NCBI GenBank assembly: GCA_948144175.1
Contig: CANXME010002281.1
Location: forward strand, 62,001-126,000
DNA: 64,000 nt
Direction: 5' to 3'
Source of the DNA: Closterium sp. NIES-65
Taxonomy: Eukaryota > Streptophyta > Zygnematophyceae > Desmidiales > Closteriaceae
The notes beneath the pieces were generated by a model that did no database searches, was not told where the DNA came from, and saw only the letters and a list, made by a program, of their open reading frames with translations. The stretch's first letter is position 1; each line of letters opens with the position of its first letter. Position numbers and translations under genes: made by a program. Shown in pieces: positions 25,300-59,966 of this stretch.

Positions 25300-25868
25300 G
25301 ACGGTGGCGATGAAGAGCCGAGCTGTTTCTTTGGCTGAGATTGAATTCGTGCAGGCTACGAAGTGTGCCATCTTCGTCAACCGATCGACGGCGACCATTT
25401 CCACTTGCCCCGGCCAGTAACCCCATGACGAAGTCCATTGTCAATTGATGCCAAGCGCGCTCTGGGGGTGGTATCGGCTGCAACTATCCTGCCGGCCGCT
25501 TCCATGATGATTTCATGAGTTGGCAGGTGGGACACGATGCCACGTATCACTTCACGTCGGTCAACAATTCGGGCCAGTGATAGTATCGCTTTAGCTGCTG
25601 CCGTGTCTTTTCTACCCCGAAGTGTCCTGAGGTAACGCCGTCGTATGCATCCTGCAGTAACAGCTCCCTTAGTAAAGTGTAGCCCGGTGTTCAGATGCGA
25701 TCTGTATCGGCTTTTACGTAATAAACCCCCTTTGTTGCTGCGAACTGCTGCTTTCCGCCTATAAAGAACAGGTCTGTTTGGTAGCCGTGGGTAAGTAGTC
25801 GTGTCACTAGTGGGCTGGTCTGGGCGCGTATCTGGGTTAGTGCATCGGCGATGTTTGATTCTCCCTTT
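25300..25868 (-). pseudogene. Gypsy-1 RNase H end, integrase zinc domain and core start
   Basis: Minus strand from 25868: ESNIADALTQIRAQ (end of RNase H/linker), then HFGVEKTRQQLKRYYHWP with a downstream CPTC, the H2C2 zinc-binding domain of a gypsy integrase near 25510-25640. Then come HQLTMDFVMGL near 25450 and VDRLTKMAHFV near 25385, the start of the catalytic core. It carries an in-frame TGA in the zinc domain and a frameshift near 25430. It ends at Copia-3. Confidence 0.75.
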
Positions 25869-26245
25869 TGTCAGTAGAGCTACACTGTGAGATCCACGAT
25901 CGATTCTAGGGGGGGTTACAGGCGCGTTTGCCTGGGGGGTTATGGGCGCACTGACCCGCTACTGAAACAAGCCCTTTTATCCCAATGGTCTAGTGGTTGG
26001 GATTCTGACATGGTATCAAAGCGGTCTCGGGTTCGAATCCCGGTATATGCACATGTTGGCCGTTGCCACTGTACTCAGTCCTGGGCCTCCCAGTGTGGGG
26101 GAGTGTCAGTAGAGCTACACTGTGAGATCCCGGATCGATCCTAGGGGGGGTTACAGGCGCGTTTGCCTGGGGGGTTATGGGCACACTGACCCGCTACTGA
26201 AACAAGCCCTTTTGTCCCAATGGTCTAGTGGTTGGGATTCTGACA
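25869..26245 (+). mobile_element. TRIM-1, 377-bp miniature LTR retrotransposon with tRNA-like promoter
   Basis: Two 142-bp LTRs (25869-26010 and 26104-26245, five differences, TGTCAG...TGACA ends) around only 93 bp, flanked by perfect target duplication CCTTT (25864-25868 and 26246-26250). The interior starts with PBS TGGTATCAAAGCGG (26011-26024) and ends with a purine-rich GTGTGGGGGAG. There is no coding capacity. The LTR end holds TGGTCTAGTGG, an exact tRNA A-box. The interior just past the PBS holds GGTTCGAATCC, an exact B-box within a perfect T-arm stem. It is inserted in the gypsy RNase H/integrase junction. Confidence 0.9.
25986..26040 (+). promoter_or_regulatory. tRNA-like internal pol III promoter in TRIM-1
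   Basis: A-box 25986-25996 (TGGTCTAGTGG, in the 5' LTR) and B-box 26030-26040 (GGTTCGAATCC, in the interior), 33 bp apart as in tRNA genes. The D-arm region resembles eukaryotic tRNA-Glu. The T-arm folds perfectly with one G-T pair, but the acceptor stem and anticodon arm do not pair well, so this is not a functional tRNA gene. The A-box alone recurs in the 3' LTR (26221-26231). Confidence 0.65.
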
Positions 26246-26250
26246 CCTTT

Positions 26251-26335
26251 TTGTATTTGACTATGTAATAAAATTTGGACTTGAGAAAATCGAGCCAACG
26301 AACCTGACGTGGTTGAGGTGGGGCTGTGCACGAAG
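26251..26335 (-). pseudogene. Gypsy-1 RNase H fragment between TRIM-1 and Copia-4
   Basis: Minus strand: matches the QPxLNxRQxRWLDFL...YYIVKYKKG stretch near the end of gypsy RNase H. It is only 85 bp and is identified by continuity with fragments on both sides. Confidence 0.6.
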
Positions 26336-26480
26336 TGTCGAACTATATATGCTTAAGTCTGTTTAGGCTGTAGTCGGGTAGTCAATATGGGGTACAACAC
26401 TTTAGGGTTTCCTATTTGTATTCCTCATGTTGCTGAATGCAATTATTCCTTCCTCAGCTTCTCACATGGTATAGAGCAGG

Positions 26481-27548
26481 TTCCCTAGTGGGAACGCTTC
26501 CCAAGGGCCCACTACTATTTTTTTTTTTCCCTGCCCGGAGCGCGCTTTGCCTCTGCCCGGAGCGCGCTTTGCCTCTGCCCGAGTCGCGCCCCGTGTGCCC
26601 TACCTACCGTCGCGTCCTAGCCCTTAGAGGCCCGTCGCGCCCTCCTCAGGCCCCTAGCGGCCCTCTCTCACGGCCCCGTAGCCGCCCTGCCGGCCCCGTA
26701 GCCGACCTTAGCGGCCCCGTCGCCGCCCTGTCGGCCCCGTTGCCGACCCTAGCGGCCCCGTCGCCACCCTTGCAGCCCCGTCGCCGCCCTGTCGGCCCCG
26801 TCGCTGACCCTCGCGGCCCCGTCGCCGCCCTCAACGGCCCTGTCGCCGCCCTGTAGGCCCCGTCGCCGACCCGTGTCGGCCCCGTCGCCGACCCTTTCGG
26901 CCCCGTCGCCGCCTTTGCGGCCCCGTCGCCGCCCTAAGCGGCCCTGTAGCCGCCCGATCGGCCCCGTCGCCGCCCTCAGCGGCTCCGTCGCCGACCCTGC
27001 CGGCCCCGTCGCCGACCTTATCGGCCCGTCGCCGACCCTACCGGCCCCGCCGCCGACACCCGTGGCCCTGTCGCCGCCCTCAGTGGCCTCGTTGCCACCC
27101 TACCGGCCCCGTCGCCACCTTCGCCGCCCCGTCGCCGCCCTAAGCGGCCCCGCAGCCGCCCGATCGGCCCCGTCGCCACCCTACCGGCCCCGTCGCCGAC
27201 CTCAGCGGCCCGGTCGCCGCCCATAGCGGCCCTGTCGCCACCCTACCCTCCTTCACGGCCCCGTCGCCGTCTCTACCGGCCCCTTCCAAGCCGCCAGCAG
27301 CCTGACAGCCGAGCCGCCGCGCCGCCCAGCAGCGGAGCCGCCGAGCCGCCCAGCAGCCAAACCGCCGAGCCGCCCAGCAGCCGAGCCACCGAGCCGCCCA
27401 GCAGCCGAGCCGCCGAGCCGCCCAGCCGCCGAGCAGCCGAGCCGCCGAGCCGCCCAGCAGCCGAGCCGTCGAGCCGCCTTTCTTCCGTCGCGCCCCGGCC
27501 CTACTTCCTTGGACTGGTAAGCTCACTCCCTCATAGGCCGCTTCAGTC
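26481..27548 (+). repeat. Copia-4 leader minisatellite
   Basis: About 1 kb of tandem GC-rich units. CGGCCCCGTCGCCGCCCT (~18 bp) dominates at 26640-27290, and a second block of CGAGCCGCCCAGCAGC units (~15-18 bp) fills 27300-27475. It precedes the gag start. No credible gene. Confidence 0.8.
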
Positions 27549-34361: not shown

Positions 34362-34578
34362 TGTCAGAATGTTATCTTATGTTCTAGCCTGTAGTGGGGT
34401 GCTCTATAGCGAGTACAACCCTTCTAGGGTTTGCTATTTGTATCCTCATTCCTGCTAGTTCAACCCCCCTTTCTTTCTTCTAATTTTGTCATGGTATCAG
34501 AGCAGGTCGATCCCCTTGGATCGATCCTGTGGGTGGGTTACCACCACCTCGTTGCTTCCGCTGCAACTGCTACTCTCT

Positions 34579-34715
34579 CTGCCGCACGCCCCGTGGCGTG
34601 CGGCAGTCTTTCTTCCCGCCGTGCGCCCCGAGGCGCGCGGCGGTTTTCTGCCCGCCGTGCGCCCCGAGGCGCGCGGCGGTTCTCTGCCCGCTGTGCGCCC
34701 CGAGGCGCGCGGCGG
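34579..34715 (+). repeat. NA-2 leader hairpin array
   Basis: Four 12-bp-stem, 4-nt-loop hairpins at 34579-34606, 34616-34643, 34652-34679 and 34688-34715, a period of 36-37 bp. Every loop starts CC (CCGT or CCGA). The first stem (CTGCCGCACGCC/GGCGTGCGGCAG) corresponds to the NA-1 hairpin TGTCGCACGCC/GGCGTGCGACA with paired substitutions. Confidence 0.7.
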
Positions 34716-35689
34716 GCTTCTGCCTCGTCGCTCGGCACGTCGCCCTCGGGAGGCGCTGCGACGGGCGACGGGGACCCGCGCGCCGGCCCCGCGCCGCTGC
34801 CCCGGCCCGTCGACGCCCGTGCGCCGCTGCCCCGGCCCGTCGACGCCCGTGCGCCGCTGCCCCGGCTCGTCGACGTCCGTGCGCCGCCAGCCCTGGCCCG
34901 TCGCCGCCCGTGCGCCACCTGCCCCGGCCCGTCGCCGCCCGTGCGCCGCCCGTCCCGGCCCCATGCCGCTGTCCCGGCCCCACGCCGCCCGTGCGCCGTC
35001 CGTCCCGGCCCCGGCCCCGCCTGCGGCCCCTTTTCCCGTCGCCCGTCGCGGCTCCCCTCGGGGTGGGGGAGGGGGGCGAGCGCCGCCCCTTCTGCTGCCT
35101 GTCTTGGCGCCCTGGGGGGCCGCGCGTCGGATCCCCCCCCTCCCCCGTAACCTCCCTACCTGCCATCCCGCCCTGCTTGTGTTAGGGTTTGGGGAGTGGC
35201 AAGTAGGGGGTGGCGAGTATGGGGGTGGCACTTCTTCATTCCTCCCTTTGCTCCTCCTCCTCCTTCGTCTCCCACTGCTGCAGCTGTCGCTGAGGGGGGT
35301 GGATGTGTGGGAGACTGGGGTTTAGGGTTTAAGGGGGGTGCGTGGGAGTGGAGCTAGGGGTGTAGCAGCGGGTGTGTGTTGGGGGAGTTGGATAGTTAGG
35401 GAAGCTGCATGGAGGTTGCCGTCGTGTCGTCAGCAGCACCTGTATTCCGGGGGCTTCGCCGGGTAGCCCAGTCGTAGCCAGCTGTGCCAGCCGCCCGTGG
35501 ATTTGTTGCTCGTCTGCCGCTACTTTAGCCGCGGGGCCAGTTACTCCAGTAGTCCGGGGGCTTCGCCTGGTAGCCGCTGTGCCAGTGTGCCTCCTGTTGC
35601 CCGTGTGTCTGCAGCTTCAGCCGTCGCCTCCTATCTCCTCTCCTCTCAGTCTCTCTCCTCCTCCTCACTTGCCCGTTGTGACTACCACT

Positions 35690-35828
35690 AGCTTTGCTCA
35701 TAATTGTGAACTTTAAACTATTCCTTCTTGAACTTGTGCTCAGAATGTGTGGTGACATTGTGATCCACCCTGAGCTTGTACTGCTTTGCCTGCTCTGCTG
35801 ATTACACCCCACTTTGGCTATGGGGGTG
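35690..35828 (+). promoter_or_regulatory. NA-2 3' UTR with polypurine-tract hairpin
   Basis: Shares with the coding copias the segment ACTTGTGCTCAGAATGTGTG...GTGATCCACCCTGAGC, then the stem ACACCCC/GGGGTGT around the loop ACTTTGGCTATG. The polypurine tract GGGGGTGTG lies on the 3' arm, next to the LTR at 35829. Confidence 0.65.
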
Positions 35829-35963
35829 TGTCAGAATGTTATCTTATGTTCTAGCCTGTAGTGGGGTGCTCTATAGAGAGTACAACCCTTCTAGGGTTTG
35901 CTATTTGTATCCTCATTCCTGCTAGTTCAACCCCCCTTTCTTTCTTCTAATTTTGTCACCTCC

Positions 35964-37664: not shown

Positions 37665-38759
37665 TCCCATCCTAGGGACTGTTCTTTAGGGCCCACCGAA
37701 GCGCGCCCGAGGCGCGGGCCTTTTTTTTTTAGCGACCCTCCGAGTCGCCCTTTTCCTTCGCGGCCCCGCCGCCCTACTTCGCTGCCCGACCGCCGCCCTA
37801 CTCGCGGCCCAGCCGCCGCCCTACCTTAGCGGCCCACCCGCCGCCCTTGCTAGCGGCCCCGCCGTCCCGTCGCGGCCCCGCCACCCACTCGCGGCCCCGC
37901 TACCCCTTCGCGCGGCCCCGCCACTCCGTCGCGGCCCCGCCACCCCTTCGAGCGGCCCCGCCACTCCGTCGCGGCCCCGCCACTCCGTCGCGGCCCCGCC
38001 ACCCCTTCGAGCGGCCCCGCCACTCCGTCGCGGCCCCGCCACTCCGTCGCGGCCCCGCCACTCCGCCGCGGCCCCGCCACTCCGTCGCGGCCCCGCCACC
38101 CTTCGAGCGGCCCCGCCACTCCGTCGCGACCCCGCCACCCAGTCGCGGCCCCGCTACCTCTTCGCGCGGCCCCGCCACTTCGTCGCGGCCCCGCCACCCC
38201 TTTGAGCGGCCCCGCCACTCTGTCGCGGCCCAACCGCCGCCCTACCTGCGGCCGTCCCGCCGCCCTACCTGCGGCCTACCAGCCGCCCTACCTGCGGCCG
38301 TCCGCCGCCCTATCTGCGGCCGTCCCGCCGCCCTACCTGCGGCCTGCCCGCCGCCCTACTTGCGGCCCACCCGCCGCCCTACCTGCGGCCCGCCCGGCCG
38401 CCCTACCTACGCGGCCCAGCGGCAGCCGAGCCGCCGCGCCGCCCAAGAGCAGCCGAGCCGCCCAGGAGCCACCGAGCCGCCCAGCAGCAGCCGAGCCGCC
38501 CAGCAGCAGCCGAGCCGCCCGGAGCCGCCGAGCCGCCCAGCAGCAGCCGAGCCGCCCGGAGCCGCCGAGCCGCCCAGCAGCAGCCGAGCCGCCCAGCAGC
38601 AGCCGAGCCGCCCGGGAGCCGAGCCGCCCAGCAGCCTAGCCGCCGAGTCGCCAGGCGACCTTCCTCCCGAGCCGCCCGACCTGCCCTGCCCGGTGAGCAC
38701 TGCACCGCTGTCACCGCGTACCCTTCCCCTACTGCTTGCACTGCTCCACTGTCGTCGTC
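37665..38759 (+). repeat. Copia-5 leader minisatellite
   Basis: GC-rich tandem repeats. CGCGGCCCCGCCACTCCGT-type units (18-19 bp) run 37850-38230, CCTACCTGCGGCC units follow, and AGCCGAGCCGCCCAGCAGC units (15-18 bp) run 38410-38640. Frames are open on both strands because of composition. No gene called. Confidence 0.8.
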
Positions 38760-41700
38760 ATGGCTACACCCAGTGTCCTCACTTTTGACGCTGAGGGTCG
38801 AGCCATTGACTTTGAGGTCTGGCTCGACGACCTGCAGCTGTTTTTACAGTGCGATAGGGCGGACGGTCTGTCTCTCTTTGACCTCACCTCTGGCGCCGTC
38901 CCTGCCCCTGCTGCTGATGCTGACGCCACTGTTCGCTCTCAGTGGGCCACGCGCGATGCTGCTGCACGTCTTGCTGTGCGTCGCCACCTGCCTACCGCTG
39001 AGCGCGCGCACTTTAGCCAGTACAAGAGTGCTCAGACCTTGTACGACGCTGTAGTTGCGCGCTACTCCTCCCCTGCCACTGCTGCACTGAGCCGCCTCAT
39101 GCTCCCCTTCCTCTTCCCTGACCTTGCCGCCTTTCCCACTGTCGCTGATCTCATCACGCACCTCCGCACTAGTGACACTCGCTACCGCGATGCGCTTCCT
39201 GCTGACTTCTGTGCCAAGAACGCCCCCCCCATGTACATCACTCTCTACTTCTTAGTCACTTGCCTCCCTGACTCCCTTCGTGTAGTCCGGAACCACTTCC
39301 TCGCGGTCTGTCCCACCACCCTCACAGTCGACAGCCTCGAGAAGGCCCTCCTTGCAGCAGAGAAGAGCATAGTTGCTGTAGGAGCCTCTCGAGGTGACCC
39401 CCGCGCCCCCATCTTTGAGGGGTGTTGCCCTTCCCCTCTCCTGCCCTCTGTCGCCTCTGCCGCTGCGGCCGACCTCGTTGGTCTTGAGTCGGTCGGTGCG
39501 GCGTCTGCCTCTAGCGGGAGACGCCGCTCTGGCAAGGGCAAGGGGGGCAAGGGAGCGGGTGGGGCCAGTGCGGGCGGTGGCGGTGGAGGTGGAGGCGGCG
39601 GAGGGAGTGGGGGTGGCGGTGGAGGTGGTAGCGGGGGTGGGGGTGCTAGTGGCGGCAGTGGAGGCGGGAGTGGCGGCGGCGGTGGCGGTGGTAGTGGAGG
39701 TGGCGGAGGTGGCGGCGGTGGAGGCGTAGGCGGGGGCGGTGGAGGCGGAGGCGGGGGTGGCGGAGGTGGAGGTGGTCGGAGTGGAGCTTCGCAGCGGAGC
39801 GGCACTGGTGGCGGTCAGCGCCAGCAGCAGCAGCAGCAGCGTTCTCGCGACGTCCCCACCCCTCAGCAGCTCCGTGAGTGGTACACGCAGCGTCAGCGCG
39901 GTGGGGGTTTTGGTCCCTGCACCTACGTTCTCCGCACTGGCGACCGCACTGGAGAGCAGTGTGGGGGTGCCCACCCCGCCCAGCGCTGCTTTGGCCGCCT
40001 GACGGACACTTGGCGTCAGCAGTTCCCGGAGGCCGCGGAGATCCCCCGCTGGGGAGAGCTGTCTAGGGCTGGTGTAGCTATCTTTGATCTTGATTTTGAT
40101 GCTATCCTTGCTGCCATGTATGCTGTGACCATTAGTGATGAGGGTGATTGTTACCGGTGTTTCCCGCCCGACCCGGGCATTGGTACTACTGCTCCAGGTG
40201 CCGGTGAGGCTTCTGCTCTAGGTGCCAGTGCGTCTGTGCTCTCAGGTGCTGGTGAGACCGCTCTCTCAGGTACTAGTGCGTCTGCGCTCTCAGGTACTGC
40301 GTCGGCTTCGGCCTCCCACACCTTCACTCTTGACTCTGGAGCGTCTCGCTCTTTCTTTCGGGACCGCACCACACTTACGGTGCTTAGTCGGCCGGTTGCG
40401 GTTTCCCTGGCTGACCCCTCTAGGGGTCCTGTCCTGTCTCGCTTCTCCACAGTCCTCCCGTGTCCCGCGGCTCCCTCTGGCACCCTGTCTGGTCTCTACC
40501 TCCCCTCGTTCTCTACGAACTTGGTGAGTGGTGCTGACCTACAGGATGCGGGAGTCCACCAGTTCACCCCTGCTCGTCAGCGAGTGACGCACTGCACAGA
40601 GGCTAGCACGGGTCGTCACCTGGCTACGTTTACACGTCACCCAGGGTCGAGCCTGTACACACTGACCACTGCTTCTCCTCCAGGTGCTGAGTCTGGTAGA
40701 GTCCCTTCGTCTGGTCAGGTGTTTGCTGCAGCGTCCAGGTTTGGTCCTGAGTCTGCCCCCTGTTCGTGTCGCCGTCTATCTCACGAGACCCTCCTCTGGC
40801 ACCACCGCCTTGGCCACCCCTCTCTGCTTCGGCTCAGAGGCATGGCCTCCCGTCTTCTTGTGTCTGGTCTCCCTCGGTCCCTCCCTCCCCTTCCTCAGGG
40901 CCCTGGCCCTGCCTGTGTCCCCTGTGTCGAGGGGCGCCAGCGTGCTGCCCCTCACTCCTCCCAGTTTCCTCCGACAGAGGCTCCGTTGCAGACGCTCCAC
41001 ATGGACGTGTGGGGCCCTGCCCGCGTCCGTGGACTCGGTCACGAGCGCTACTTCCTGTTGGTGGTTGACGACTACTCGCGTTACACCACAGTCTTCCCCT
41101 TGCGCAGCAAGGGTGATGTCACTGAGGTGCTGATCGACTGGATCCGCGCAGCTCGTCTCCAGCTCAGGCAGAGCTTTGGCTCGGACTTTCCTGTGTTGCG
41201 TCTGCACTCGGACAGAGGCGGAGAGTTCTCCTCTTGCCTTCTGCGTGCCTACTGTCGTGCGCGAGGCATCCGCCAGACCTTCACGCTTCCGGACTCCCCG
41301 CAGCAAAATGGGATTGCAGAGCGCCGCATTGGCATGGTCATGGACGTCGCTCGTACGTCTATGATGCATGCGGCTGCCCCCCATTTTCTGTGGCCGTTTG
41401 CGGTCAGGTACGCGGCGCATCAGATCAACCTCCACCCCAGGGTCTCCAGGCCGGAGACCTCCCCAGCCCTGCTGTGGACAGGGAAGGTTGGCGATGCGTC
41501 GGCGTTCCGGGTCTGGGGATCTCAGGCGTTTGTCCGCGACTTGTCTGCGGACAAGCTGTCCCCTCGCGCTGCTCCCTGCGTCTTCCTGGGGTTCCCCCCC
41601 GACGCCCCTGGGTGGCAGTTCTACCACCCCACCTCTCGACGTGTTCTATCCTCCCAGGATGTCACGTTCGACGAGTCGGTACCCTACTACCGTCTCTTCC

Positions 41701-42930
41701 CCTACCGCACTCCGTCCCTCCCCCCGCCCCCGCTCTTCTTGGTACCAGGTCCCCCCCCCGGTAGACCCCCTCCCCCCTCAGGGTCCTGCCCCTTCAGGTG
41801 TGTCCAAGGTAGACGCGGTCGAGCCTGTCGAGGTCACTGGTGACTCTGGTGCTGCTGCGTGAGCTGAGCCTGGGGGTGCTGAGCCTGGGGGTGCGGAGTC
41901 TAGAGGTGCTGAGCCTGGGGGTGCTGAGTCTGGGGGTGCTGCGCCTGGGGGTACTGAGTCTGGGGGTGCTGGGCCTGGGGGTGCTGAGCCTGGGGGTGCT
42001 GGGCCTGGGGGTGCTGAGCCTGGGGGTGCAGAGCCTGGGGGTGCTGGGCCTGGGGGTGCTCCGCCTTGAGGTGCTTCGTCTCGCCGAGAGCCACTCTCCC
42101 CACAGGAGCTCCGTGAGTGGTTTGCCCGGCGCTGGAGGCGTGCTGCTGGTGCTGGAGGTTCTTCGGCTGCGGAGGGTGTTGCTGCCGAGCGTCCCGGAGG
42201 TACTCGTACTGTGGGTGCTGGAGCTACTTGGTCTGAGGGTTCTCCTAGAGCTGGTGCTGCTAAGGGTGTTGGCGCTGAGAGTACCGCTGGCGGTCCGGCT
42301 GGCAGTGCTCCTGAGGGTGCTGCTGGAGGTTCTGGAGCTACTGGAGGTGCTGCTGGAGGTGCTGCTGGAGCGGGTACTCCTGCTGGGGGTACTGGTGCTG
42401 TCACTGCTGTTTCTGGTGTCGCCACGCGGCCTCGACCGTACTTCGTTCCGCTACTGCAGCAGGTTCTTGGTCTTACACCTTCTCCTGGTCCTCCTCCTCC
42501 TCCCTTAGAGGGTCCACAGCCGGTCTCCTCACAGTCACACCTACAGCCTGCCTCCCCTTTGCCTGCTCCTTCTCCCTACGCTGGTCCGACTGGAGGTCTT
42601 ACTGAGCGTCATGAGCCTGCGTCTCGTCATGCGTCGCCTGTTCGTCCTGCGCGCACTAGTGGTCGCGGTTCGCGTCAGCGTCCGCCTCCTGTCCCTTACA
42701 CGCACCGGATGTCTCTGCGTCCGTCCACTGCTCCTCTGCGTGCCCCTTTGCCTTCTCCTCCTGCTTCCTCTCTTCCTGCTCTTGCCGACCCGGCGTCGGA
42801 CTCTCTTCGTGCTGCCAGTCCTACTGTCACGCGTCTCCTTGCTACTGCTGTCAGTGACCCTTCTTTCGAGTCTTCTGCTGCGTCTGCCCTTGTCACTGAG
42901 CTTGCGACTTTGCTGCGCGCTGTCGTCTAG
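38760..42930 (+). pseudogene. Copia-5 gag, protease, integrase and linker
   Basis: Start ATG 38760 (MATPSVLTFD). Open to about 41750. Gag has a Gly-rich tail of about 80 residues (39550-39780), a Gln tract, and knuckle CX13CX3HX4C near 39915-39990. Protease LDSGASRSFF is near 40335. GAG-pre-integrase HHRLGHPSLLRL is near 40805. The integrase has DRGGEF near 41215 and QNGIAERR near 41310. A one-base expansion in the C run 41751-41759 shifts the frame relative to Copia-7. TGA follows at 41860-41862 and near 42068, both at Gly positions in the repetitive linker, and a one-base deletion near 42905 breaks the frame again. So gag to integrase could still be made, as a truncated polyprotein. Confidence 0.85.
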
Positions 42931-44693
42931 ACTACGCTGCTAGTCTTGTCGCTGCATCTGAGTCTGCCTGTCCTCCGTCCGTCGGGGGTGAGTGTGCCCT
43001 TGGCACGGACGTCCTTGAGGACAGGCAGGAGGAGTTACAGTGTCTGGCCGCCGCTTCACCTCATCTCGCGTCTGTACTGCTAGCCCCTAAGGGAGACCCG
43101 GATGCACTTGACATCCCGACTCCGCGCTCTTACGCGGAGGCGATAGAGGGTCCCTACTCCTCTCAGTGGCAGGCAGCTATGGATGCAGAGATGGCTTCCT
43201 GGAAGTCCACAGGCACCTACGTTGACGCTGTTCCCCCTCCTGGGGCGAACATTGTTAGTGGCATGTGGATCTTCAGGGTGAGGCGGCCACCGAGTTCTCT
43301 GCCTGTCTTCAAGGCGCGTTACGTGGCTCGTGGCTTCAATCAGCGGCAGGGGGTTGACTACTTTCAGACCTTCTCCCCCACCCCGAAGATGACCACTCTT
43401 CGGGTACTGCTGCACGTTGCTGCTCACCGTGACTACGAGCTGCACTCTCTCGACTTCAGCACTACTTTCTTCCAGGGCAGCCTGCACGAGGAGATCTGGC
43501 TGCGTCGCCCACCTGGCTTCACTGGGTCTTTCCCTCCTGGTACCCAGTGGAGTCTCCGGCGTCCAGTCTACGGTCTCCGCCAGGCGCCACGTGAGTGGCA
43601 CGACACACTGAGGACTACGCTGGCGGCACTTGGGTTTGCTCCTTCTACTGCCGACCCGTCGCTGTTTCTGCGCACTGACACCTCTCTGCCGCCGTTCTAC
43701 ATCCTCGTATACGTCGACGACTTGGTCTTTGCCACAGCTGACACTGCTGGACTCGCCTACGTGAAGTCCGAGCTGCAGAAGAGACACACGTGCACTGACC
43801 TGGGTGAACTGCGCAGCTACCTTGGCTTGCAGATCACCCGGGACAGAGCACGCCGCACCATTACCCTGACTCAGTCACACATGGTGCAGCAGGTCCTTCA
43901 GCGCTTCGGCTTCACGTACTCCTCGCCTCAGGCCACTCCTCTGCCTACTCGCCACTCGCTCTCAGCTCTGCCTTCGGATGAGTCCGTAGAGTCGAGTGGC
44001 CCGTATGCAGAGCTTGTTGGCTGCCTCATGTACCTGATGACCTGCACACGACCTGACCTTGCATACCCTCTTAGCATTCTCGCACGCTATGTTGCTCCTG
44101 GGAGACACCGACCAGAGCACATGGCTGCAGCGAAGAGGGTGTTGCGCTACTTGTGCAGTACGTCGGGCATGGGGCTAGTGCTTGGAGGGCGCAGTCCAGT
44201 GGTCCTCACTGGGCACGCGGACGCTTCTTGGGCTGACGACCAGGCTACGCAGCGGTCGTCACAGGGTTACACCTTCAGCCTTGGTTCCGGCTCTGTTTCG
44301 TGGCGGGCTACCCGCTCGTCTTCTGTTCTCGGCTCCAGTTGTGAGGCTGAGATCTACGCTGGGGCTATGGCTGCACAGGAGTTACGCTGGCTCACCTACC
44401 TGCTGACCGGCCTTGGAGAGCCGCCTCGTTCTCCTCCAGTCCTGTACGTAGACAACAAGGCCATGCTGGCCTTGTGTCGAGAGCAGCGACTGGAGCACAG
44501 GACAAAGCATATTGCTCTCCGCTACTTTCTTGCTCGTGAGCTACAGCAACGTGGACAGTTGCGACTTGCGTACGTGGCCTCTGAGGCCAACACTGCTGAT
44601 GTCTTCACCAAGGCACTTGCGCCTTGTGATCATCAGCGTTGTTGCACGCAGCTGGGTCTTGTACCTGTCTTGCCTCACTTGCTCACTTCTTGA
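42931..44693 (+). pseudogene. Copia-5 reverse transcriptase and RNase H
   Basis: Downstream part of the same polyprotein, separated by the frameshift near 42905. RT is open from about 43100, with VYVDDLVFA near 43710. RNase H has DASWADDQATQ near 44220, CEAEIYAG, DNKAMLALC near 44455 and the C-terminal TADVFTKALAPCDH, ending TGA 44691-44693. The domain looks intact but has no start of its own. Confidence 0.87.
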
Positions 44694-45042
44694 ATTTGCT
44701 TGTACCTTCACCTATATATACTCTTGCTCTTGCTTGCTTGACTCTTGTATATCTTTATATATGATCTTGCATGTGAACTGGCCTTGTGGCCCTTGAACTT
44801 GTGCTCGGAATGTGTGGTGACTTTGTGATCCACCTTGACCTTTGCTTTGCTTTGCTTGACTGGTCTTGTGACCCCTTGTTCTCCCCCACTTTGCCTATGG
44901 GGGTGTGTCAGAACATTATAGCTTACTCATTTCTGTAGGCTATAGTGGGGTATCCCATAGGGGGTACAACCCAATTAGGGTTTCATATTTGTACTCACTT
45001 CATTTCATAGTTCATCCATTTTTTCACGTTCCTTTCTTCACA

Positions 45043-52715: not shown

Positions 52716-52847
52716 TGTGAAAGAGAGAACGTGAATGGAATGACTATGAAAGAAGTGAGTACAAATAGGAAACCCTAATTGGGTTGTACCCCCTATGGGA
52801 TACCCCACTATAGCCTACACAATAGTATAAGCTATATAGTTCTGACA
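52716..52847 (-). mobile_element. Copia-7 3' LTR
   Basis: 132 bp, begins TGTCAGAACTATATAGC on the minus strand and ends TCTTTCACA. It contains the shared block around AACCCAATTAGGGTTTCC. Confidence 0.93.
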
Positions 52848-53058
52848 CACCCCCATAGGCAAAGTGGGGGAGAACAAGGGGTCACAAGACCAGTCAAGCA
52901 AAGCAAAGCAAAGCTCAGGGTGGATCACAAAGTCACCACACATTCCGAGCACAAGTTCAAGGCCACATGGCCAGTTCACATGCAAGATCATATATAGAGA
53001 TATACAAGAGTCAAGTAAGCAAGAGCAAGAGTATATATAGGCGAAGGTACAAGCAAGG
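52848..53058 (-). promoter_or_regulatory. Copia-7 3' UTR and polypurine tract
   Basis: After the TGA, the UTR has CTATATATACTC, the conserved GAACTGGCC, TTGTGGCC and GTGATCCACCCTGAGC blocks, then CCCCCACTTTGCCTATGGGGG. The 3' G run of that stem is the polypurine tract adjoining the LTR. The same blocks are kept in Copia-2, -4, -5, -6 and NA-2. Confidence 0.75.
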
Positions 53059-56000
53059 TCAAGAGGAGAGCAAGTGAGGCAAGACAGGCACAAGACCCAA
53101 CTGCGTGCAACAACGCTGATGATCACAAGGCGCAAGTGCCTTGGTGAAGACATCAGCAGTGTTGGCCTCAGAGGCCACGTACGCAAGTCGCAACTGTCCA
53201 CGCTGCTGTAGCTCACGAGCAAGAAAGTAGCGGAGAGCAATGTGCTTCGTTCTGTGCTCCAGTCTCTGCTCTCGACACAAGGCCAGCATGGCCTTGTTGT
53301 CTACGTACAGGACTGGAGGAGAACGAGGCTGCTCTCCAAGGTCGGTCAACAGGTAGGTGAGCCAGCGTAACTCCTGTGCAGCCATAGCCCCGGCGTAGAT
53401 CTCAGCCTCACAACTGGAGCCGAGAACAGAAGACGAACGGGTAGCCCGCCACGAAACAGAGCCGGAACCAAGGCTGAAGGTGTAACCCTGTGACGACCGC
53501 TGCGTAGCCTGGTCGTCAGCCCAAGAAGCGTCCGCGTGCCCAGTGAGGACCACTGGACTGCGCCCTCCAAGCACTAGCCCCATGCCCGACGAACTGCACA
53601 AGTAGCGCAACACCCTCTTCGCTGCAGCCATGTGCTCTGGTCGGTGTCTCCCAGGAGCAACATAGCGTGCGAGAATGCTAAGAGGGTATGCAAGGTCAGG
53701 TCGTGTGCAGGTCATCAGGTACATGAGGCAGCCAACAAGCTCTGCATACGGGCCACTCGACTCTACGGACTCATCCGAAGGCAGAGCTGAGAGCGAGTGG
53801 CGAGTAGGCAGAGGAGTGGCCTGAGGCGAGGAGTACGTGAAGCCGAAGCGCTGAAGGACCTGCTGCACCATGTGTGACTGAGTCAGGGTAATGGTGCGGC
53901 GTGCTCTGTCCCGGGTGATCTGCAAGCCAAGATAGCTGCGCAGTTCACCCAGGTCAGTGCACGTGTGTCTCTTCTGCAGCTCGGACTTCACGTAGGCGAG
54001 TCCAGCAGTGTCAGCTGTGGCAAAGACCAAGTCGTCGACGTACACGAGGATGTAGAACGGCGGCAGAGAGGTGTCGGTGCGCAGAAACAGCGACGGGTCG
54101 GCAGTAGAAGGAGCAAACCCAAGTGCCGCGAGCGTAGTCCTCAGTGTGTCGTGCCACTCACGTGGCGCCTGGCGGAGACCGTAGACTGGACGCCGGAGAC
54201 TCCACTGGGTACCAGGAGGGAAAGACCCAGTGAAGCCAGGTGGGCGACGCAGCCAGATCTCCTCGTGCAGGCTGCCCTGCAAGAAAGCTGTGCTGAAGTC
54301 GAGAGAGTGCAGCTCGTAGTCACGGTGAGCAGCAACGTGCAGCAGGACCCGAAGAGTGGTCATCTTCGGGGTGGGGGAGAAGGTCTGAAAGTAGTCAACC
54401 CCCTGCCGCTGACTGAAGCCACGAGCCACGTAACGCGCCTTGAAGACAGGCGGAGAACCCGGCGGCCGCTTCACCCTGAAAATCCACATGCCACTGACGA
54501 TGTTCGCCCCAGGGGGGGGAACAGCGTCAACGTAGGTGCCTGTGGACTTCCAGGAAGCCATCTCTGCATCCATAGCTGCCTGCCACTGAGAGGAGTAGGG
54601 ACCCTCTATCGCCTCCGCGTAAGAGCGCGGAGTCGGGATGTCTGGTGCATCCGGGTCTCCCTCAGGGGCTAGCAGTACAGACGCGAGACGAGGTGAAGCG
54701 GCGGCTAGACACTGGAACTCCTCCTGCCTGTCCTCAAGGACGTCCGTGCCAAGGGCACACTCACCCCCGACGGACGGAGGACAGGCGGACTCAGACTCAG
54801 TGACAAGACGGGCAGCGTAGTCTAGACGACAGCGCGCAGCAAAGTCGACAAGCTCAGTGACAAGGGCAGACGCAGCAGACGACTCGAAGGAAGGGTCAGT
54901 GACAGCTGTAGCAAGGAGACGCGTGACAGTAGGACTGGCAGCACGAAGAGAGTCCGACTCCGGGTCGGCAAGAGCAGGAAGAGAGGAAGCAGGAGGAGAA
55001 GGCAAAGGGGCACGCAGAGGAGCAGTGGACGGACGTAGTGACATCCGGTGCATGCCAGGAACAGGAGGAGGACGCTGACGCGACCCGCGACCACTAGCGC
55101 GCTCAGTACGAACAGGCGACACAGGACGAGACGCAGGCTCACGACGCTCAGTAAGACCTCCAGTCGGACCAGTGTAGGGAGACGGAGCAGGCAAAGGGGA
55201 GGCAGGCTGTAGCTGTGGCTGTGACCGGACAGGCTGCGGACCCTCTAAGGGAGGAGGAGGAGGAGGCGGAAGACCAAGAACCTGCTGCAGGAGCGGAACG
55301 AAGTAAGGTCGGGGCCGCGCGGCGACACCAGAAACAGCAGGAACAGTACCAGCAGCCCCGGCAGGAGTACCCACTCCAGCAGCACCTCCAGCAGCACCAC
55401 CAGAAGCTCCAGAACCTCCAGCAGCAGCACCAGGAGCACTGTCAGTCGAACCGCCAACGGCAGGCTCAGCGCCAACACCCTCAGTAGCACCAGCTCCAGG
55501 AGAACTCTCAGACCCAGCAGCTCCAGCACCCACAGTACGAGCACCGGCGGGACGCGAGGCAGCAGTACCCTCTGCAGCCGAAGAACCACCAGCACCAGCA
55601 GCACACCTCCAGCGCCTAGCAAACCACTCACGCAGCTCCTGCGGGGAGAGTGGCTCCCGGCGAGACGAAGCACCCCCAGGCACAGCACCCCCAGGCTCAG
55701 CACCCCCAGGCACAGCACCCCCAGGCTCGGCACCTCCAGGCTCAGCACCCCCAGACGCAGCACCCCCAGGCTCAGCACCCCTAGGCACAGCACCCCAAGG
55801 CTCAGCACCCCCAGGCTCAGCACCCCCAGGCTCAGCACCCCCAGGCTCAGCACCCCCAGGCTCAGCACCCCCAGGCTCAGCACCCCCAGGCTCAGCACCC
55901 CCAGGCTCAGCACCCCCAGACTCCGCACCCCCAGGCTCAGCTCCCGCAGCAGCACCAGAGTCACCAGTGACCTCGACAGGCTCGACCGCGTCTACCTGGG

Positions 56001-59000
56001 ACACACCTGAAGGGGCAGGACCCTGAGGGGGGAGGGGGACTACCGGGGGGGGGCCTGGTACCAGGAAGAGCGGGGGTGGGGGGAGGGACGGAGTGCGGTA
56101 GGGGAAGAGGCGGTAGTAGGGTACCGACTCGTCGAACGTGACGTCCTGGGAGGACAGAACACGTCGAGAGGTGGGGTGGTAAAACTGCCACCCAGGGGCG
56201 TCGGGGGGGAACCCCAGGAAGACGCAGGGAGAAGCACGAGGGGACAGCTTGTCCGCAGACAGGTCGCGAACAAACGTCCGAGATCCCCAGACCCGGAACG
56301 CCGACGCATCGCCAACCTTCCCCGTCCACAGCAGGGCTGGGGAGGTCTCCGGTCGAGAGACCCTGGGGTGGAGGTTGATCTGGTGCGCAGCGTACCTGAC
56401 CGCAAACGGCCACAGAAAATGGGGAGCAGCCGCATGCATCATGGACGTACGAGCGACGTCCATGACCATGCCAATGCGGCGCTCAGCAATCCCATTCTGC
56501 TGTGGTGAGTCCGGAAGCGTGAAGGTCTGACGGATGCCTCGTGCACGACAGTAGGCACTCAGGAGGCCAGAGGAGAACTCTCCGCCTCTGTCCGAGTGCA
56601 GACGCAAAACAGGGAAGTCAGAGCCAAAGCTCCTCCGAAGCTGGAGACGAGCTGCGCGGATCCAGTCGATCAACACCGCAGTGACCTCACCCTTGCTGCG
56701 CAAGGGGAAGACTGTGGTGTAACGCGAGTAGTCGTCAACCACCAGCAGGAAGTAGCGCTCCTGACCCTGTCCACGGACGCGGGCTGGGCCCCACACGTCC
56801 ATGTGAAGCGTCTGCAACGGGGCCTCTGTCGGAGGAAACTGGGAGGAGTGAGGGGCAGCACGCTGGCGCCCCTCGACACAGGGGACACAGGTAGGGCCAG
56901 GGCCCGGAGGAAGGGGAGGGAGAGACCGGGGAAGACCAGACACAAGGACTCGCGAGGCCATGCCTCTGAGCCGAAGCAGAGAGGGGTGGCCAAGGCGGTG
57001 GTGCCAGAGGAGGGTCTCGTGAGACAGACGACGACACGAGCAAGGGGCAGACTCAGGACCAGACCTGGACGCTGCAGCAAACACCTGACCAGACGAAGGG
57101 ACCCTACCAGACTCAGCACCTGGAGGAGAAGCAGTGGTCAGTGTGTACAGGCTCGACCCTGGCCGACGTGTAAACGTAGCCAGGTGGCGACCTGTATCCG
57201 CCTCCGTGCAGTGGGTCACCCGCTGACGAGCAGGGGTGAACTGGTGGACACCCGCATCCTGGAGGTCAGCACCACTCACCAAGTTCGTCGAGAACGAGGG
57301 GAGGTAGAGACCAGTCAGGGTGCCAGAGGGGGCCGCCGGACACGGGAGGACAGTGGAGAAGCGAGACAGGACAGGCCCCCCAGAGGGGTCAGCCAGGGAC
57401 ACCGCAACCGGCCGACTCAGCGGCGTGAGAGTGGTGCGGTCCCTAAAGAAGGAGCGAGACGCTCCAGAGTCAAGGGTGAAGGTGTGAGAGGCCGAAGCCG
57501 ACACAGTACCTGAGAGGGCAGACTCACCAGCACCTGAGAGCACAGACGCACTGGCACCTAGAGCAGCAGCCTCACTAGTACCTGACGCGGCAGTACCAAT
57601 GCCCGGGTCGGGCGGGAAACACCGGTAACAGTCATCCTCATCACTACCAGTCACAGCATACATAGCAGAGAGAATAGCATCAAAATCAAGATCATAAATA
57701 GCTACACCAGCCCTAGACAGCTCTCCCCAGCGGGGGATCTCAGCGGCCTCCGGAAACTGCTGACGCCAGGCGTCGGTCAGGCGGCCAAAGCAGCGGCGGG
57801 CTGTGTGGGCGCCTCCACACCTCTCCCCTGCACGGTCATCTGTGCGAAGAACGTAGGGGCAGGGACCAAGCGCACCACCACGCTGACGCTGCAAGTACCA
57901 CTCACGGAGCTGCTGAGGGCCGGGGACGGTGCGAGAGCGCTGCTGCTGCTGTGGCTGCTGCTGCGGCTGCTGCTGCTGCTGCTGCTGGCGCTGACCACCC
58001 CCAGAGCTGCTCCGCTGGGACGAGCCACTCCGACCCCCGCCTCCACCGCCACCCCCGCCTCCACCGCCACCCCCGTCTCCACCGCCACCTCCCCCACCAG
58101 GACCGTCGCTCCCACCGCTCCCACCGCCTCCTCCGCTACCACCTCCGCCGCCACCTCCGCCTCCACAGCCGCCACCAGTACCTCCACTCCCGCCACCACC
58201 CCCACCGCCACCCCCACTCCCCCCGCCACCCCCACCGCCTCCTCCACCGCCCCCTCTAGCTCCACCCGCTCCCTTGCCCCCTTTGCTCTTGCCAGAGCGG
58301 CGTCTGCCGCTGGGGGCAGACGCCGCGCCGACCGACTCAAAACCAGTGAGGTCGGCCGCAGCGGCAGAGGCGACAGAGGGCAGCAGGGGGGAAGGACCAC
58401 ACCCCTCAAAGATGGGGGTGCGAGGGTCACCCCGAGAGGCCCCTACAGCGACAATACTCTTCTCAGCCGCTAGCAGGGACTCCTCAAGGAGGTCGACAGT
58501 GAGAGTGGTGGGACAGACAGAGAGAAACTGGTCCCTAACGACACGAAGGGACTCAGGGAGACGGGTGACGAGAAAGTAGAGGGTGATGTACATGGGAGGA
58601 GGGTTCGCAGCGCGGAACTCAGCAGGAAGGGCAGCGCGGTAGCGGGTGTCACTAGCACGGAGGTGGGTAACGAGGTCAGCGACAGTGGGAAAGGAAGCGA
58701 GGTCAGGGAAGAGAAACGGTAGCATGAGGCGGCTAAGGGTAGCGGAGGAAGGGGAGGAGTAGCGTGCAACTACAGCGTCGTACAAGGCCTGAGCGGACTT
58801 GTACTGACTAAAGTGGGCACGCTCAGAGGAAGGGAGGTGGCGACGCACAGCAAGACGTGCAGCAGCATCGCGGGTCGCCCACTTGGAGCGAACGGCAGAG
58901 TCAGCATCAGCAGGTGGGGCAGGAACAGCGCCAGAGACAAAGTCAAAAAGAGAGACCTCATCTATCGCATCACACAGTAAGTACAGCTGCAGGTCTTCAA

Positions 59001-59064
59001 TCCAGACGGCAAAGTCAATGGCCCTTCCCTCAGCGTCAAAAGTAAGAACATTGGGGGTGGCCAT
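53059..59064 (-). CDS. Copia-7 gag-pol polyprotein (intact)
   Basis: About 2,001 codons without a stop, TGA at 53059-53061. I chose ATG 59064 (MATPNVLTFD) because this start is shared by three other families; an in-frame ATG at 59085 would add seven residues. Gag comes first, with a Gly-rich tail at about residues 255-345 and a Gln tract at about 355-375. Next is knuckle CX13CX3HX4C (57860-57790), then protease LDSGASRSFF at about residue 535, and GAG-pre-integrase HHRLGHPSLLRL. The integrase has DVWGPARV (about 760), DRGGEF (about 830) and QNGIAERR (about 865). A linker of tandem GAEPGG-like repeats (55668-55960) follows. RT has VYVDDLVFA (about 1680). RNase H has DASWADD, EAEIYAG, DNKAMLAL (about 1925). 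All motifs expected for a working Ty1/copia element are present. Gag-pol being one frame, gag excess would need proteolysis or RNA processing. Confidence 0.95.
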   Translation of the reverse strand: MATPNVLTFDAEGRAIDFAVWIEDLQLYLLCDAIDEVSLFDFVSGAVPAPPADADSAVRSKWATRDAAARLAVRRHLPSSERAHFSQYKSAQALYDAVVARYSSPSSATLSRLMLPFLFPDLASFPTVADLVTHLRASDTRYRAALPAEFRAANPPPMYITLYFLVTRLPESLRVVRDQFLSVCPTTLTVDLLEESLLAAEKSIVAVGASRGDPRTPIFEGCGPSPLLPSVASAAAADLTGFESVGAASAPSGRRRSGKSKGGKGAGGARGGGGGGGGGGGGSGGGGGGGGGSGGTGGGCGGGGGGGGGSGGGGGSGGSDGPGGGGGGGDGGGGGGGGGGGGGGRSGSSQRSSSGGGQRQQQQQQQPQQQPQQQQRSRTVPGPQQLREWYLQRQRGGALGPCPYVLRTDDRAGERCGGAHTARRCFGRLTDAWRQQFPEAAEIPRWGELSRAGVAIYDLDFDAILSAMYAVTGSDEDDCYRCFPPDPGIGTAASGTSEAAALGASASVLSGAGESALSGTVSASASHTFTLDSGASRSFFRDRTTLTPLSRPVAVSLADPSGGPVLSRFSTVLPCPAAPSGTLTGLYLPSFSTNLVSGADLQDAGVHQFTPARQRVTHCTEADTGRHLATFTRRPGSSLYTLTTASPPGAESGRVPSSGQVFAAASRSGPESAPCSCRRLSHETLLWHHRLGHPSLLRLRGMASRVLVSGLPRSLPPLPPGPGPTCVPCVEGRQRAAPHSSQFPPTEAPLQTLHMDVWGPARVRGQGQERYFLLVVDDYSRYTTVFPLRSKGEVTAVLIDWIRAARLQLRRSFGSDFPVLRLHSDRGGEFSSGLLSAYCRARGIRQTFTLPDSPQQNGIAERRIGMVMDVARTSMMHAAAPHFLWPFAVRYAAHQINLHPRVSRPETSPALLWTGKVGDASAFRVWGSRTFVRDLSADKLSPRASPCVFLGFPPDAPGWQFYHPTSRRVLSSQDVTFDESVPYYRLFPYRTPSLPPPPLFLVPGPPPVVPLPPQGPAPSGVSQVDAVEPVEVTGDSGAAAGAEPGGAESGGAEPGGAEPGGAEPGGAEPGGAEPGGAEPGGAEPGGAEPWGAVPRGAEPGGAASGGAEPGGAEPGGAVPGGAEPGGAVPGGASSRREPLSPQELREWFARRWRCAAGAGGSSAAEGTAASRPAGARTVGAGAAGSESSPGAGATEGVGAEPAVGGSTDSAPGAAAGGSGASGGAAGGAAGVGTPAGAAGTVPAVSGVAARPRPYFVPLLQQVLGLPPPPPPPLEGPQPVRSQPQLQPASPLPAPSPYTGPTGGLTERREPASRPVSPVRTERASGRGSRQRPPPVPGMHRMSLRPSTAPLRAPLPSPPASSLPALADPESDSLRAASPTVTRLLATAVTDPSFESSAASALVTELVDFAARCRLDYAARLVTESESACPPSVGGECALGTDVLEDRQEEFQCLAAASPRLASVLLAPEGDPDAPDIPTPRSYAEAIEGPYSSQWQAAMDAEMASWKSTGTYVDAVPPPGANIVSGMWIFRVKRPPGSPPVFKARYVARGFSQRQGVDYFQTFSPTPKMTTLRVLLHVAAHRDYELHSLDFSTAFLQGSLHEEIWLRRPPGFTGSFPPGTQWSLRRPVYGLRQAPREWHDTLRTTLAALGFAPSTADPSLFLRTDTSLPPFYILVYVDDLVFATADTAGLAYVKSELQKRHTCTDLGELRSYLGLQITRDRARRTITLTQSHMVQQVLQRFGFTYSSPQATPLPTRHSLSALPSDESVESSGPYAELVGCLMYLMTCTRPDLAYPLSILARYVAPGRHRPEHMAAAKRVLRYLCSSSGMGLVLGGRSPVVLTGHADASWADDQATQRSSQGYTFSLGSGSVSWRATRSSSVLGSSCEAEIYAGAMAAQELRWLTYLLTDLGEQPRSPPVLYVDNKAMLALCREQRLEHRTKHIALRYFLARELQQRGQLRLAYVASEANTADVFTKALAPCDHQRCCTQLGLVPVLPHLLSS

Positions 59065-59085
59065 GGCAGCAGCTGGAAGTCTCAC

Positions 59086-59966
59086 CGGGCTGGGAGAGTC
59101 GGGTAGGTCAGCAGCAGAAGAACACAGCTCAGGAACAGCAGCACGGCGGCTCGGGCGGCTCGGGCGGCTCGGGCGGCTCGGGCGGTTCGGGCGGCTCGGG
59201 CGGCGGCTCGGTCGCAGCTCAGCGGCGGCTCGGGCGGCGGCGGCTCGGCGGCGGCTCGGCTGCTGCTGGGCGGCTGGGCGGCGGCTCGGGCGGCTCCGGC
59301 TCTGCGGCGCAGGCGGCGGCGGCTCGGCGGCGGCCCGGGCGGCGGCTCAGGCGGCGGCGGCTCGGCGGCGGCTCGGCTGCTGCTGGGCGGCTCGGCTGAT
59401 GCTGGGCGGCTCGGCGGGGCCGCGGAGCAGAGGGCGGCGGTGCCGCGTAGGAGAGGGCGGCGGGGCCGCGTAGCAGAGGGCGGCGGGGCCGCGTAGCAGA
59501 GGGCGGCGGAGCCGCGTAGCAGAGGGCGGCGGAGCCGCGATCGAGGGGCGGCGGGGCCGCGTAGCAGAGGGCGGCAGGGCCGCGTAGCAGAAGGCGGCGG
59601 GGCCGCGTAGCTGAGGGCGGCAGGGCCGCGACGTAGGGCGGCGGGCGGGCCGTCGAAGTAGGGCGGCGGGCGGGCCGGGACGTAGGGCGGCGGGGCCGCG
59701 ACGTAGGGCGGCGGGCGGGCCGTCGAAGTAGGGCGGCGGGCGGGCCGGGACGTAGGGCGGCGGGGCCGCGACGTAGGGCGGCGGGCAGGCCGCGACTTAG
59801 GGCGGCGAGGCCGCGCGATAGGGCGGCGGGGCCGCAAGGTAGGGCGGCTCGACAGGCCGCTAGGGAGGGCGACACGACGGGTCGCTAAACAAAAGGACGC
59901 GCGCCTCGGGGCGCGCTTTGGTGGGCCCAAGAAACAGTCCCTAGTAGGGGACCTGCTCTGATTCCA
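59086..59966 (-). repeat. Copia-7 leader minisatellite and PBS
   Basis: From the PBS (TGGAATCAGAGCAGG, ending at 59966) the leader runs through 59430-59870 with units like GGGCGGCGGGGCCGCGTAGCAGA on the plus strand (about 23 bp) and GGCGGGCGGGCCG variants. A second block, GGCGGCTCGG (9-10 bp), fills 59140-59400. Non-coding. Confidence 0.8.

What the first reader, a model, noticed from the sequence alone, without database searches (positions are those of the whole stretch)
25869..26245. A 377-bp TRIM whose LTR-PBS junction forms a tRNA-type pol III promoter
Seen: 142-bp LTRs, perfect 5-bp target duplication and a PBS. An exact A-box (TGGTCTAGTGG) ends the LTR, and an exact B-box (GGTTCGAATCC) with a perfect T-arm lies 33 bp downstream, past the PBS. 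Known: Cassandra TRIMs carry a 5S rRNA pol III promoter in the LTR; I do not know of a TRIM whose tRNA promoter is split between LTR and interior. Inference: a tRNA or tRNA-derived SINE fused with a copia-primed LTR element, possibly transcribed by pol III.
Basis: partly seen in the sequence, partly recalled or inferred. Interest (0 to 1): 0.8.

Follow-up and report, generated by a model that had tools for sequence, protein, structure and literature searches.

The report
Mini-retrotransposon with a split tRNA promoter
A green alga's genome carries very many copies of a tiny jumping element whose tRNA-like start signal is divided between its terminal repeat and its interior, and hybrid copies suggest that it moves with the machinery of larger Copia elements.

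Summary
The feature is real. Window 25869-26245 is an LTR element: 142-bp LTRs, 93-bp interior, PBS, polypurine tract, 5-bp target duplication. An exact A box lies in the LTR and an exact B box in the interior, 44 bp apart (start to start), with the PBS between them. It belongs to a young, abundant family of a probable Closterium (desmid alga) genome: 881 exact A-N(32-34)-B matches, 0 in the control. Of 39 simple copies, 38 have 5-bp duplications and 26 have identical LTRs. The PBS fits the host initiator-Met tRNA. Between single representatives of three subfamilies a 74-bp block spanning the junction is invariant while both sides diverge; single dead copies show no clear extra conservation of the B box. 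TRIMs with tRNA promoters are published (Helenus, TRIMp3), but with the tRNA sequence in the LTR; here it is split. New here: 22 of 23 fetched junction places have a Copia-like LTR against the TRIM PBS, and five hybrid insertions have target duplications, two with a long gag-pol ORF. This points to co-packaging with Copia and strand exchange at the PBS. Pol III transcription is inferred; no RNA data.

The parts
25864..25868 (+). left target-site duplication CCTTT
25869..26010 (+). 5' LTR (142 bp)
   Evidence: 39 simple copies compared
25968..25978 (+). CAAGCCCTTTT block in the 5' LTR: predicted pol III start (CAA); predicted R = AAGCCCTTTT, 25969-25978
   Evidence: exact in 39 of 39 simple copies; CAA as start site of plant tRNA genes from passages of PMC11700998; role inferred
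25986..25996 (+). A box TGGTCTAGTGG (LTR half of the promoter)
26011..26022 (+). primer-binding site (TGGTATCAAAGC here, TGGTATCAGAGC in 36 of 39 simple copies), in the place of a tRNA anticodon arm
26027..26043 (+). T-arm-like hairpin holding the B box
   Evidence: sequence (pairs counted by eye); inside the sub-threshold Rfam tRNA match
26030..26040 (+). B box GGTTCGAATCC (interior half of the promoter)
26093..26103 (+). polypurine tract before the 3' LTR
26104..26245 (+). 3' LTR (142 bp)
26210..26213 (+). TTTT in the 3' LTR: predicted pol III terminator, 3' end of a ~245-nt RNA
   Evidence: CAAGCCCTTTT exact in 37 of 39 3' LTRs; role inferred
26246..26250 (+). right target-site duplication CCTTT
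38472..44968 (+). window Copia stretch 88.6% identical to the Copia part of the hybrid L110 (candidate partner lineage)
   Evidence: RVT_2 in the ORF 42900-44693
52785..59934 (-). window Copia, 91.8% and 93.6% identical in two blocks to the Copia part of the hybrid L110 (candidate partner lineage)
   Evidence: stop-free frame 53059-59346

Best explanation
This is a TRIM (mini LTR retrotransposon) with a self-carried tRNA-type pol III promoter split across the LTR/interior border. Pol III would use the A box (LTR) and B box (interior), start near CAA upstream of the A box in the 5' LTR, read through interior and U3, and stop at TTTT in the 3' LTR, giving a ~245-nt RNA with a ~10-nt terminal repeat (R). 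Initiator-Met tRNA primes at the PBS, which sits where the anticodon arm would be. Copia proteins in trans reverse-transcribe and integrate it with 5-bp duplications. As the B box is not in the LTR, only the 5' LTR/interior junction forms a whole promoter; solo and 3' LTRs hold half. In the particle, plus-strand DNA ending in the PBS can anneal to the minus strand of the other element, giving Copia/TRIM hybrids joined at the LTR/PBS border. Shown: structure, copy number, PBS fit, hybrids. Inferred: pol III use, start and stop, co-packaging, strand-transfer step.
For: Boxes at tRNA spacing 881 times, control 0. 39 simple copies at 37 sites: TSD 38, B box 39, A box 38 in each LTR, identical LTRs 26. 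Three subfamily representatives: 0 of 74 columns vary from LTR 111 to interior 184, against 18 of 71 in U3 1-71 and 32 of 40 in interior 185-224. PBS equals the complement of the host initiator-Met tRNA 3' end: 26 places, all with GCTCTGAT, final A and CCA inferred. None of the 7 other PBS leaders that the script found has a B box (up to 1 mismatch) within 45 nt, so it is not a general Copia leader feature. Hybrids with matching 5-bp TSD: L079 TGTTT, L107 GAATT, L110 ACCCC, L111 GCCGA, and L113 GCTCC with a Copia-like 5' LTR and a TRIM 3' LTR. L110 and L111 carry stop-free frames of 1999 and 1713 codons with integrase and RVT_2. In 22 of 23 fetched junction places the LTR against the TRIM PBS matches LTRs of these hybrids or of window Copias; L128 matches none.
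Against: No RNA, ChIP or inhibitor data. tRNA model score below cut-off. At copy level the B box varies like its surroundings (6 of 187 against 19 of 476 at 72-99). The B and C representatives came from a search that required both boxes. Some copies lack CAA (L059, L063) or TTTT (L071); 3 of 29 LTRs have a broken TTTT (L084, L105, L108, by eye). CAA lies at -11 to -9, at the edge of the first 10 nt named in PMC11700998. The predicted R is only 10 nt, and TTTT also lies just after the proposed start. In hybrids L121 and L122 TRIM sequence runs past TTTT before joining other DNA.
Confidence: 0.72

Rival explanations
1. An ordinary pol II-transcribed TRIM; the tRNA-like block is kept for reverse transcription (extra pairing of the post-PBS region with the tRNA primer, or packaging), not as a promoter.
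For: The invariant block also contains U5, PBS and post-PBS sequence that any LTR element must keep; the T-arm-like sequence after the PBS could pair with a tRNA T arm (inference); copies without CAA or TTTT exist.
Against: Exact A and B consensus at tRNA spacing is not needed for priming; 7 of 7 other PBS leaders found lack the B box; A box 0 of 319 changes in 29 LTRs picked by their U3 start.
Confidence: 0.18
2. A plain Helenus/TRIMp3 member with the tRNA sequence in the LTR.
For: Similar size, 5-bp TSD, PBS, PPT; a lycophyte member with 120-bp LTR and 85-bp interior is on record (PMC10886601).
Against: The LTR ends 14 bp after the A box and holds no B box; in the parts of the paper that I read the tRNA-derived sequence with both boxes lies in the LTR. 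Whether the lycophyte member is also split could not be read (supplement not open to me).
Confidence: 0.1
3. A SINE-like dimer moved by a non-LTR element, not an LTR element.
For: The repeat unit is 235 bp, and an A/B-box RNA of that size would suit a tRNA SINE (recalled).
Against: TG..CA ends, constant 5-bp TSD in 38 of 39, PBS and PPT, hybrids with Copia-like LTRs.
Confidence: 0.02
4. The Copia/TRIM hybrids arose by recombination between chromosomal copies after insertion, so they say nothing about shared particles.
For: Nested insertions of a Copia in a TRIM copy do occur here (C10, TSD TGCCT by eye).
Against: Five hybrids are flanked as a unit by matching TSDs. In four the outer LTRs differ little: L107 3 of 129, L079 98% identical, L110 0 of 131, L111 1 of 129; L113 has unlike LTRs inside one TSD. 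Junctions fall on the LTR/PBS border.
Confidence: 0.12

Closest known systems
Helenus (Kojima 2024, PMC10886601)
   Same: TRIM with tRNA-type A and B boxes, PBS, PPT, 5-bp TSD in fungi and plants, Copia dependence inferred for fungal members
   Different: There the tRNA-derived sequence lies within the LTR, so each LTR holds both boxes; here the B box is in the interior and the PBS separates the boxes. The only plant host named there is Selaginella moellendorffii; here a probable streptophyte alga.
Cassandra (5S-bearing TRIM of vascular plants; passages of PMC7215508, text of PMC10886601)
   Same: pol III promoter TRIM, PBS TGGTATCAGAGC, tandem arrays, start and stop within the two LTRs giving a short R (18 bp reported)
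   Different: 5S-type promoter in the LTR; its autonomous partner is described as unknown, whereas here hybrids point to Copia
SMART / plant TRIMs moved by Copia (as cited in PMC10886601)
   Same: tiny non-coding LTR element, likely Copia-moved
   Different: no tRNA-type promoter named there
tRNA-derived SINEs (recalled, and intro of PMC10886601)
   Same: internal A/B-box promoter carried in the RNA
   Different: no LTRs, PBS or fixed 5-bp TSD; moved by LINE proteins

Membership tests
TRIM | two short LTRs, total length below 1 kb | tested here: met
   377 bp, 142-bp LTRs, 93-bp interior
TRIM | PBS after the 5' LTR and PPT before the 3' LTR | tested here: met
   PBS fits host initiator-Met tRNA (end A and CCA inferred)
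TRIM | target-site duplication and many dispersed copies | tested here: met
   38 of 39 with 5-bp TSD, 37 sites; 3137 junction and 2226 LTR-start matches
Helenus | tRNA-derived sequence with boxes A and B inside the LTR | tested here: not met
   A box in the LTR, B box in the interior
Helenus | 5-bp TSD in fungal and plant members | tested here: met
TRIMp3 (TRIM with a pol III promoter) | pol III promoter motifs in the TRIM | tested here: met
   exact A and B boxes at tRNA spacing
TRIMp3 (TRIM with a pol III promoter) | transcription by pol III | not testable with these tools
   no RNA or ChIP data
Cassandra | 5S rRNA sequence in the LTR | tested here: not met
   no 5S match in cmscan
functional tRNA gene | score above the tRNA family cut-off or a tRNA-finder call | tested here: not met
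   15.6 bits against 29; ARAGORN 0 in the window
Copia-mobilised element | physical evidence of exchange with Copia elements | tested here: met
   five TSD-flanked hybrids; 22 of 23 fetched junction loci with a Copia-like LTR
Copia-mobilised element | Copia proteins act on the TRIM in trans | not testable with these tools
   needs particles or a transposition assay

The most novel reading that the evidence does not exclude
A distinct architecture: an LTR retrotransposon whose pol III promoter exists only where LTR and interior meet, because the primer-binding site occupies the anticodon arm of a tRNA-like module. A tRNA/SINE-type RNA thereby became an LTR element without needing a promoter in its LTR; each insertion carries one whole promoter, solo LTRs none, and intermolecular plus-strand transfer at the PBS shared with Copia produces hybrid elements.
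Probability: 0.5. Interest if true: 0.76.

Novelty: new variant of a known kind. Interest (0 to 1): 0.62.

Why it matters
TRIMs with pol III promoters are known, but the texts seen here say that Cassandra's autonomous partner is unknown (PMC7215508; PMC10886601). The hybrids give physical evidence of exchange with particular Copia elements, so the partner question becomes testable in this host. The split promoter suggests a route from a tRNA-type RNA to an LTR element and avoids a second whole promoter in the 3' LTR. The host is probably a desmid, from the algal class called the closest relative of land plants (abstract start in the listing; class of Closterium recalled), outside the host table of the Helenus paper.

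Tried and rejected
Plain tRNA gene: rejected. 5S-type TRIM: rejected. B box as a general feature of Copia leaders: rejected, 0 of the 7 other leaders found. B box as a long copy of the initiator-Met primer: the complement of the host T arm gives GGTTTCGATCC 2 nt after AGAGC, against an exact GGTTCGAATCC 7 nt after it; not supported, not excluded. Parent tRNA gene: two patterns for a Glu-type A box (recalled) found 14 and 1 places, all with this family's PBS or a near variant of it; source unresolved. The Rfam tRNA search of the genome scored 63 of 18457 candidates, many at equal scores on repeated contigs that look organellar; no use for this. The fold of the predicted transcript is not more stable than shuffles (z 0.84). 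A DNA search with subfamily B did not complete and was dropped. The count of TRIM-LTR/Copia-leader junctions did not complete. First-strand transfer alone does not explain the unlike LTRs of L113; plus-strand transfer does (inference).

Full report
What was checked. The window is G000:C1983:62001-126000 of an 874-Mb, 2400-contig genome. The 120 listed of 7449 relatives of a window Copia reverse transcriptase are all named Closterium, so I take the host to be a Closterium, a desmid alga. The element lies at 25869-26245: LTRs of 142 bp (96% identical), 93-bp interior, CCTTT duplicated at both ends, PBS 26011-26022, PPT 26093-26103, A box 25986-25996 and 26221-26231, B box 26030-26040.

A family, not one copy. 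The exact A box, 32-34 bases and exact B box occur 881 times, the reversed control 0 times. A 31-base junction pattern with up to 3 mismatches occurs 3137 times, the first 27 bases of the LTR with up to 3 mismatches 2226 times, both with control 0. Some loci appear twice in the assembly (below), so these counts are somewhat inflated. One search scored 40 of 1628 candidates and listed 41 matches, the window's own and 40 others; I fetched those 40 as 39 loci, L009-L047 (two overlapping matches share L042). With the window copy, 39 are simple two-LTR copies at 37 distinct sites (window and L009, and L012 and L017, share flanks): TSD 38 of 39 (L027 misses), identical LTRs 26, B box exact 39, A box exact 38 in the 5' and 38 in the 3' LTR, PBS TGGTATCAGAGC 36, CAAGCCCTTTT 39 in the 5' and 37 in the 3' LTR. 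L042 is an LTR-int-LTR-int-LTR array with TAAAT on both outer sides. These copies were chosen by likeness to the window copy, so they are the young end. Six pairs of places 234-236 bases apart among the 100 places listed (counted by eye) also point to tandem arrays.

Is the promoter kept? The answer depends on the level. In 29 of 30 LTRs picked by their U3 start (L091 dropped, truncated) the A box has 0 changes in 319 positions, U3 28-96 has 64 in 2001, the 97-110 block with CAA and TTTT 6 in 406, and 129-142 6 in 406. In 17 units with interior from the same loci the B box has 6 in 187 and 72-99 has 19 in 476; the A box has 8 in 187, seven of them (by eye) from one hybrid unit of L085 whose upstream LTR is not a TRIM LTR. 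So single dead copies do not show clear extra conservation of the B box. Between one representative each of subfamilies A (L010), B (L073) and C (L071), 0 of 74 columns vary from LTR 111 to interior 184, a tRNA-sized module crossing the LTR border, while 18 of 71 vary in U3 1-71 and 32 of 40 in interior 185-224. Caveat: the B and C representatives came from the search that required both boxes, so 22 of the 74 columns were preset, and three sequences are few.

Likely working. In plants CAA within about 10 nt upstream of tRNA genes acts as a start site (passages of PMC11700998). Here CAA lies 11-9 nt before the tRNA-like first base, at the edge of that range, and TTTT directly precedes that base. 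Start at CAA in the 5' LTR and stop at TTTT in the 3' LTR would give a ~245-nt RNA with R = AAGCCCUUUU. This resembles Cassandra, whose RNA is described as starting and ending in the two LTRs with an 18-bp repeat (PMC10886601). It is inference. Against it: some copies lack CAA (L059, L063) or TTTT (L071), and in hybrids L121 and L122 TRIM sequence passes TTTT.

Primer. A pattern for initiator-Met tRNA found 26 places with 0 in the control; all 26 end in GCTCTGAT. With the usual final A and CCA (inferred) the complement is TGGTATCAGAGC, the family PBS.

Copia hybrids. Of 111 distinct TRIM LTR 3' ends in the loci then held, 65 run into flank, 41 into TRIM interior, 5 into a PBS with another leader. 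Followed up: L107 is Copia-like LTR, TRIM interior, TRIM LTR, PBS, other interior, PPT, the same LTR (3 of 129 differ), with GAATT on both sides. L079 216-2001 has the same plan with subfamily B, LTRs 98% identical, TGTTT on both sides. L110 297-7794 (outer LTRs 0 of 131 differ, ACCCC) and L111 255-7520 (1 of 129 differs, GCCGA) hold stop-free frames of 1999 and 1713 codons with gag-pre-integrase, integrase and RVT_2 domains. Over the listed matches the Copia part of L110 is 84-94% identical to Copias of this window. The fifth, L075, was not followed to its ends. A pattern for a Copia-type LTR end joined to the TRIM interior gave 25 exact places (its one-mismatch matches are mostly the TRIM's own junction, so only the exact ones count): one is L110, one (C106:2786594) is a TRIM LTR with a changed base (seen in the list), and the other 23 were fetched (L112-L134); L123/L127 and L114/L119 are each one locus twice. 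In 22 of 23 the sequence against the TRIM PBS matches LTRs of L110, L111 or L079 or of window Copias; L128 matches none of these, and the 5' part of L120's LTR is missing. Downstream of the TRIM LTR the script found 8 with PBS and another leader; L123 and L127 are of this kind by eye; L114 and L119 run into TRIM interior (by eye); L113, L120, L125, L132 into flank; L112, L117, L121, L122, L130, L133, L134 have a broken TRIM LTR joined to other, often Copia-coding, sequence (by eye). L113 has a Copia-like 5' LTR and a TRIM 3' LTR inside one GCTCC duplication.

Reading of the hybrids. Junctions fall on the LTR/PBS border, and TRIM and Copia share PBS sequence. In LTR reverse transcription the second (plus-strand) transfer uses the PBS (recalled); an exchange between two molecules at that step gives LTR(Copia)-PBS-TRIM interior-TRIM LTR, as in L113, and, when chained, the mixed arrays. 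This needs both cDNAs in one particle. The step is inferred; the structures are shown. Later deletion inside mixed arrays may explain the broken ones.

Against the known. [quoted passage not shown] So a tRNA-promoter TRIM is not new. What differs is the split. Seven searches of the held library listed no paper whose title or abstract start speaks of a promoter split between LTR and interior; the listings show 1 to 20 papers each, subscription journals are mostly not held, and the paper's supplement was not open to me. I file it as a TRIM, a TRIMp3 by motif, not as Helenus in the strict sense.

Noticed in passing
window 26336-26490: Just right of the TRIM lies a Copia-like LTR followed by the PBS TGGTATAGAGC (26467-26477) and a Copia leader, the same PBS type as in hybrids L110 and L111.
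   Followed up: partly
window 25400-26330 and L048 around 1300-1900: The window copy and the L048 copy seem to sit close together in related copies of the same host repeat (by eye), as separate insertions with different duplications.
   Followed up: no
L112, L117, L121, L122, L130, L133, L134: TRIM LTRs broken off and joined to other sequence, often Copia coding sequence (by eye); two of the breaks (L121, L134) lie at or next to the A box.
   Followed up: partly
window 34362-35954: A short Copia-like element (about 1.6 kb with LTRs) with PBS TGGTATCAGAGC, related by its LTRs to the hybrids L079 and L107.
   Followed up: partly
places: Fourteen TRIM copies with TTAGGA in place of TTGGGA after the A box, seven of them with a 3-base longer spacer after the PBS (GAAGG or AAAGG): perhaps a further subfamily.
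   Followed up: no
L012/L017, L114/L119, L123/L127, window/L009: Pairs of loci with the same flanks: the assembly seems to hold both haplotypes or duplicates for part of the genome, so genome-wide counts are somewhat inflated.
   Followed up: partly
L075: A TRIM-C array followed by a PBS-like sequence and, a few bases on, ATGTCTACTAGAAAGG, which looks like a Copia gag start (by eye).
   Followed up: no
L128: A TRIM interior joined at its PBS to an LTR-like sequence that matches none of the Copia LTRs compared: a possible further partner family.
   Followed up: partly
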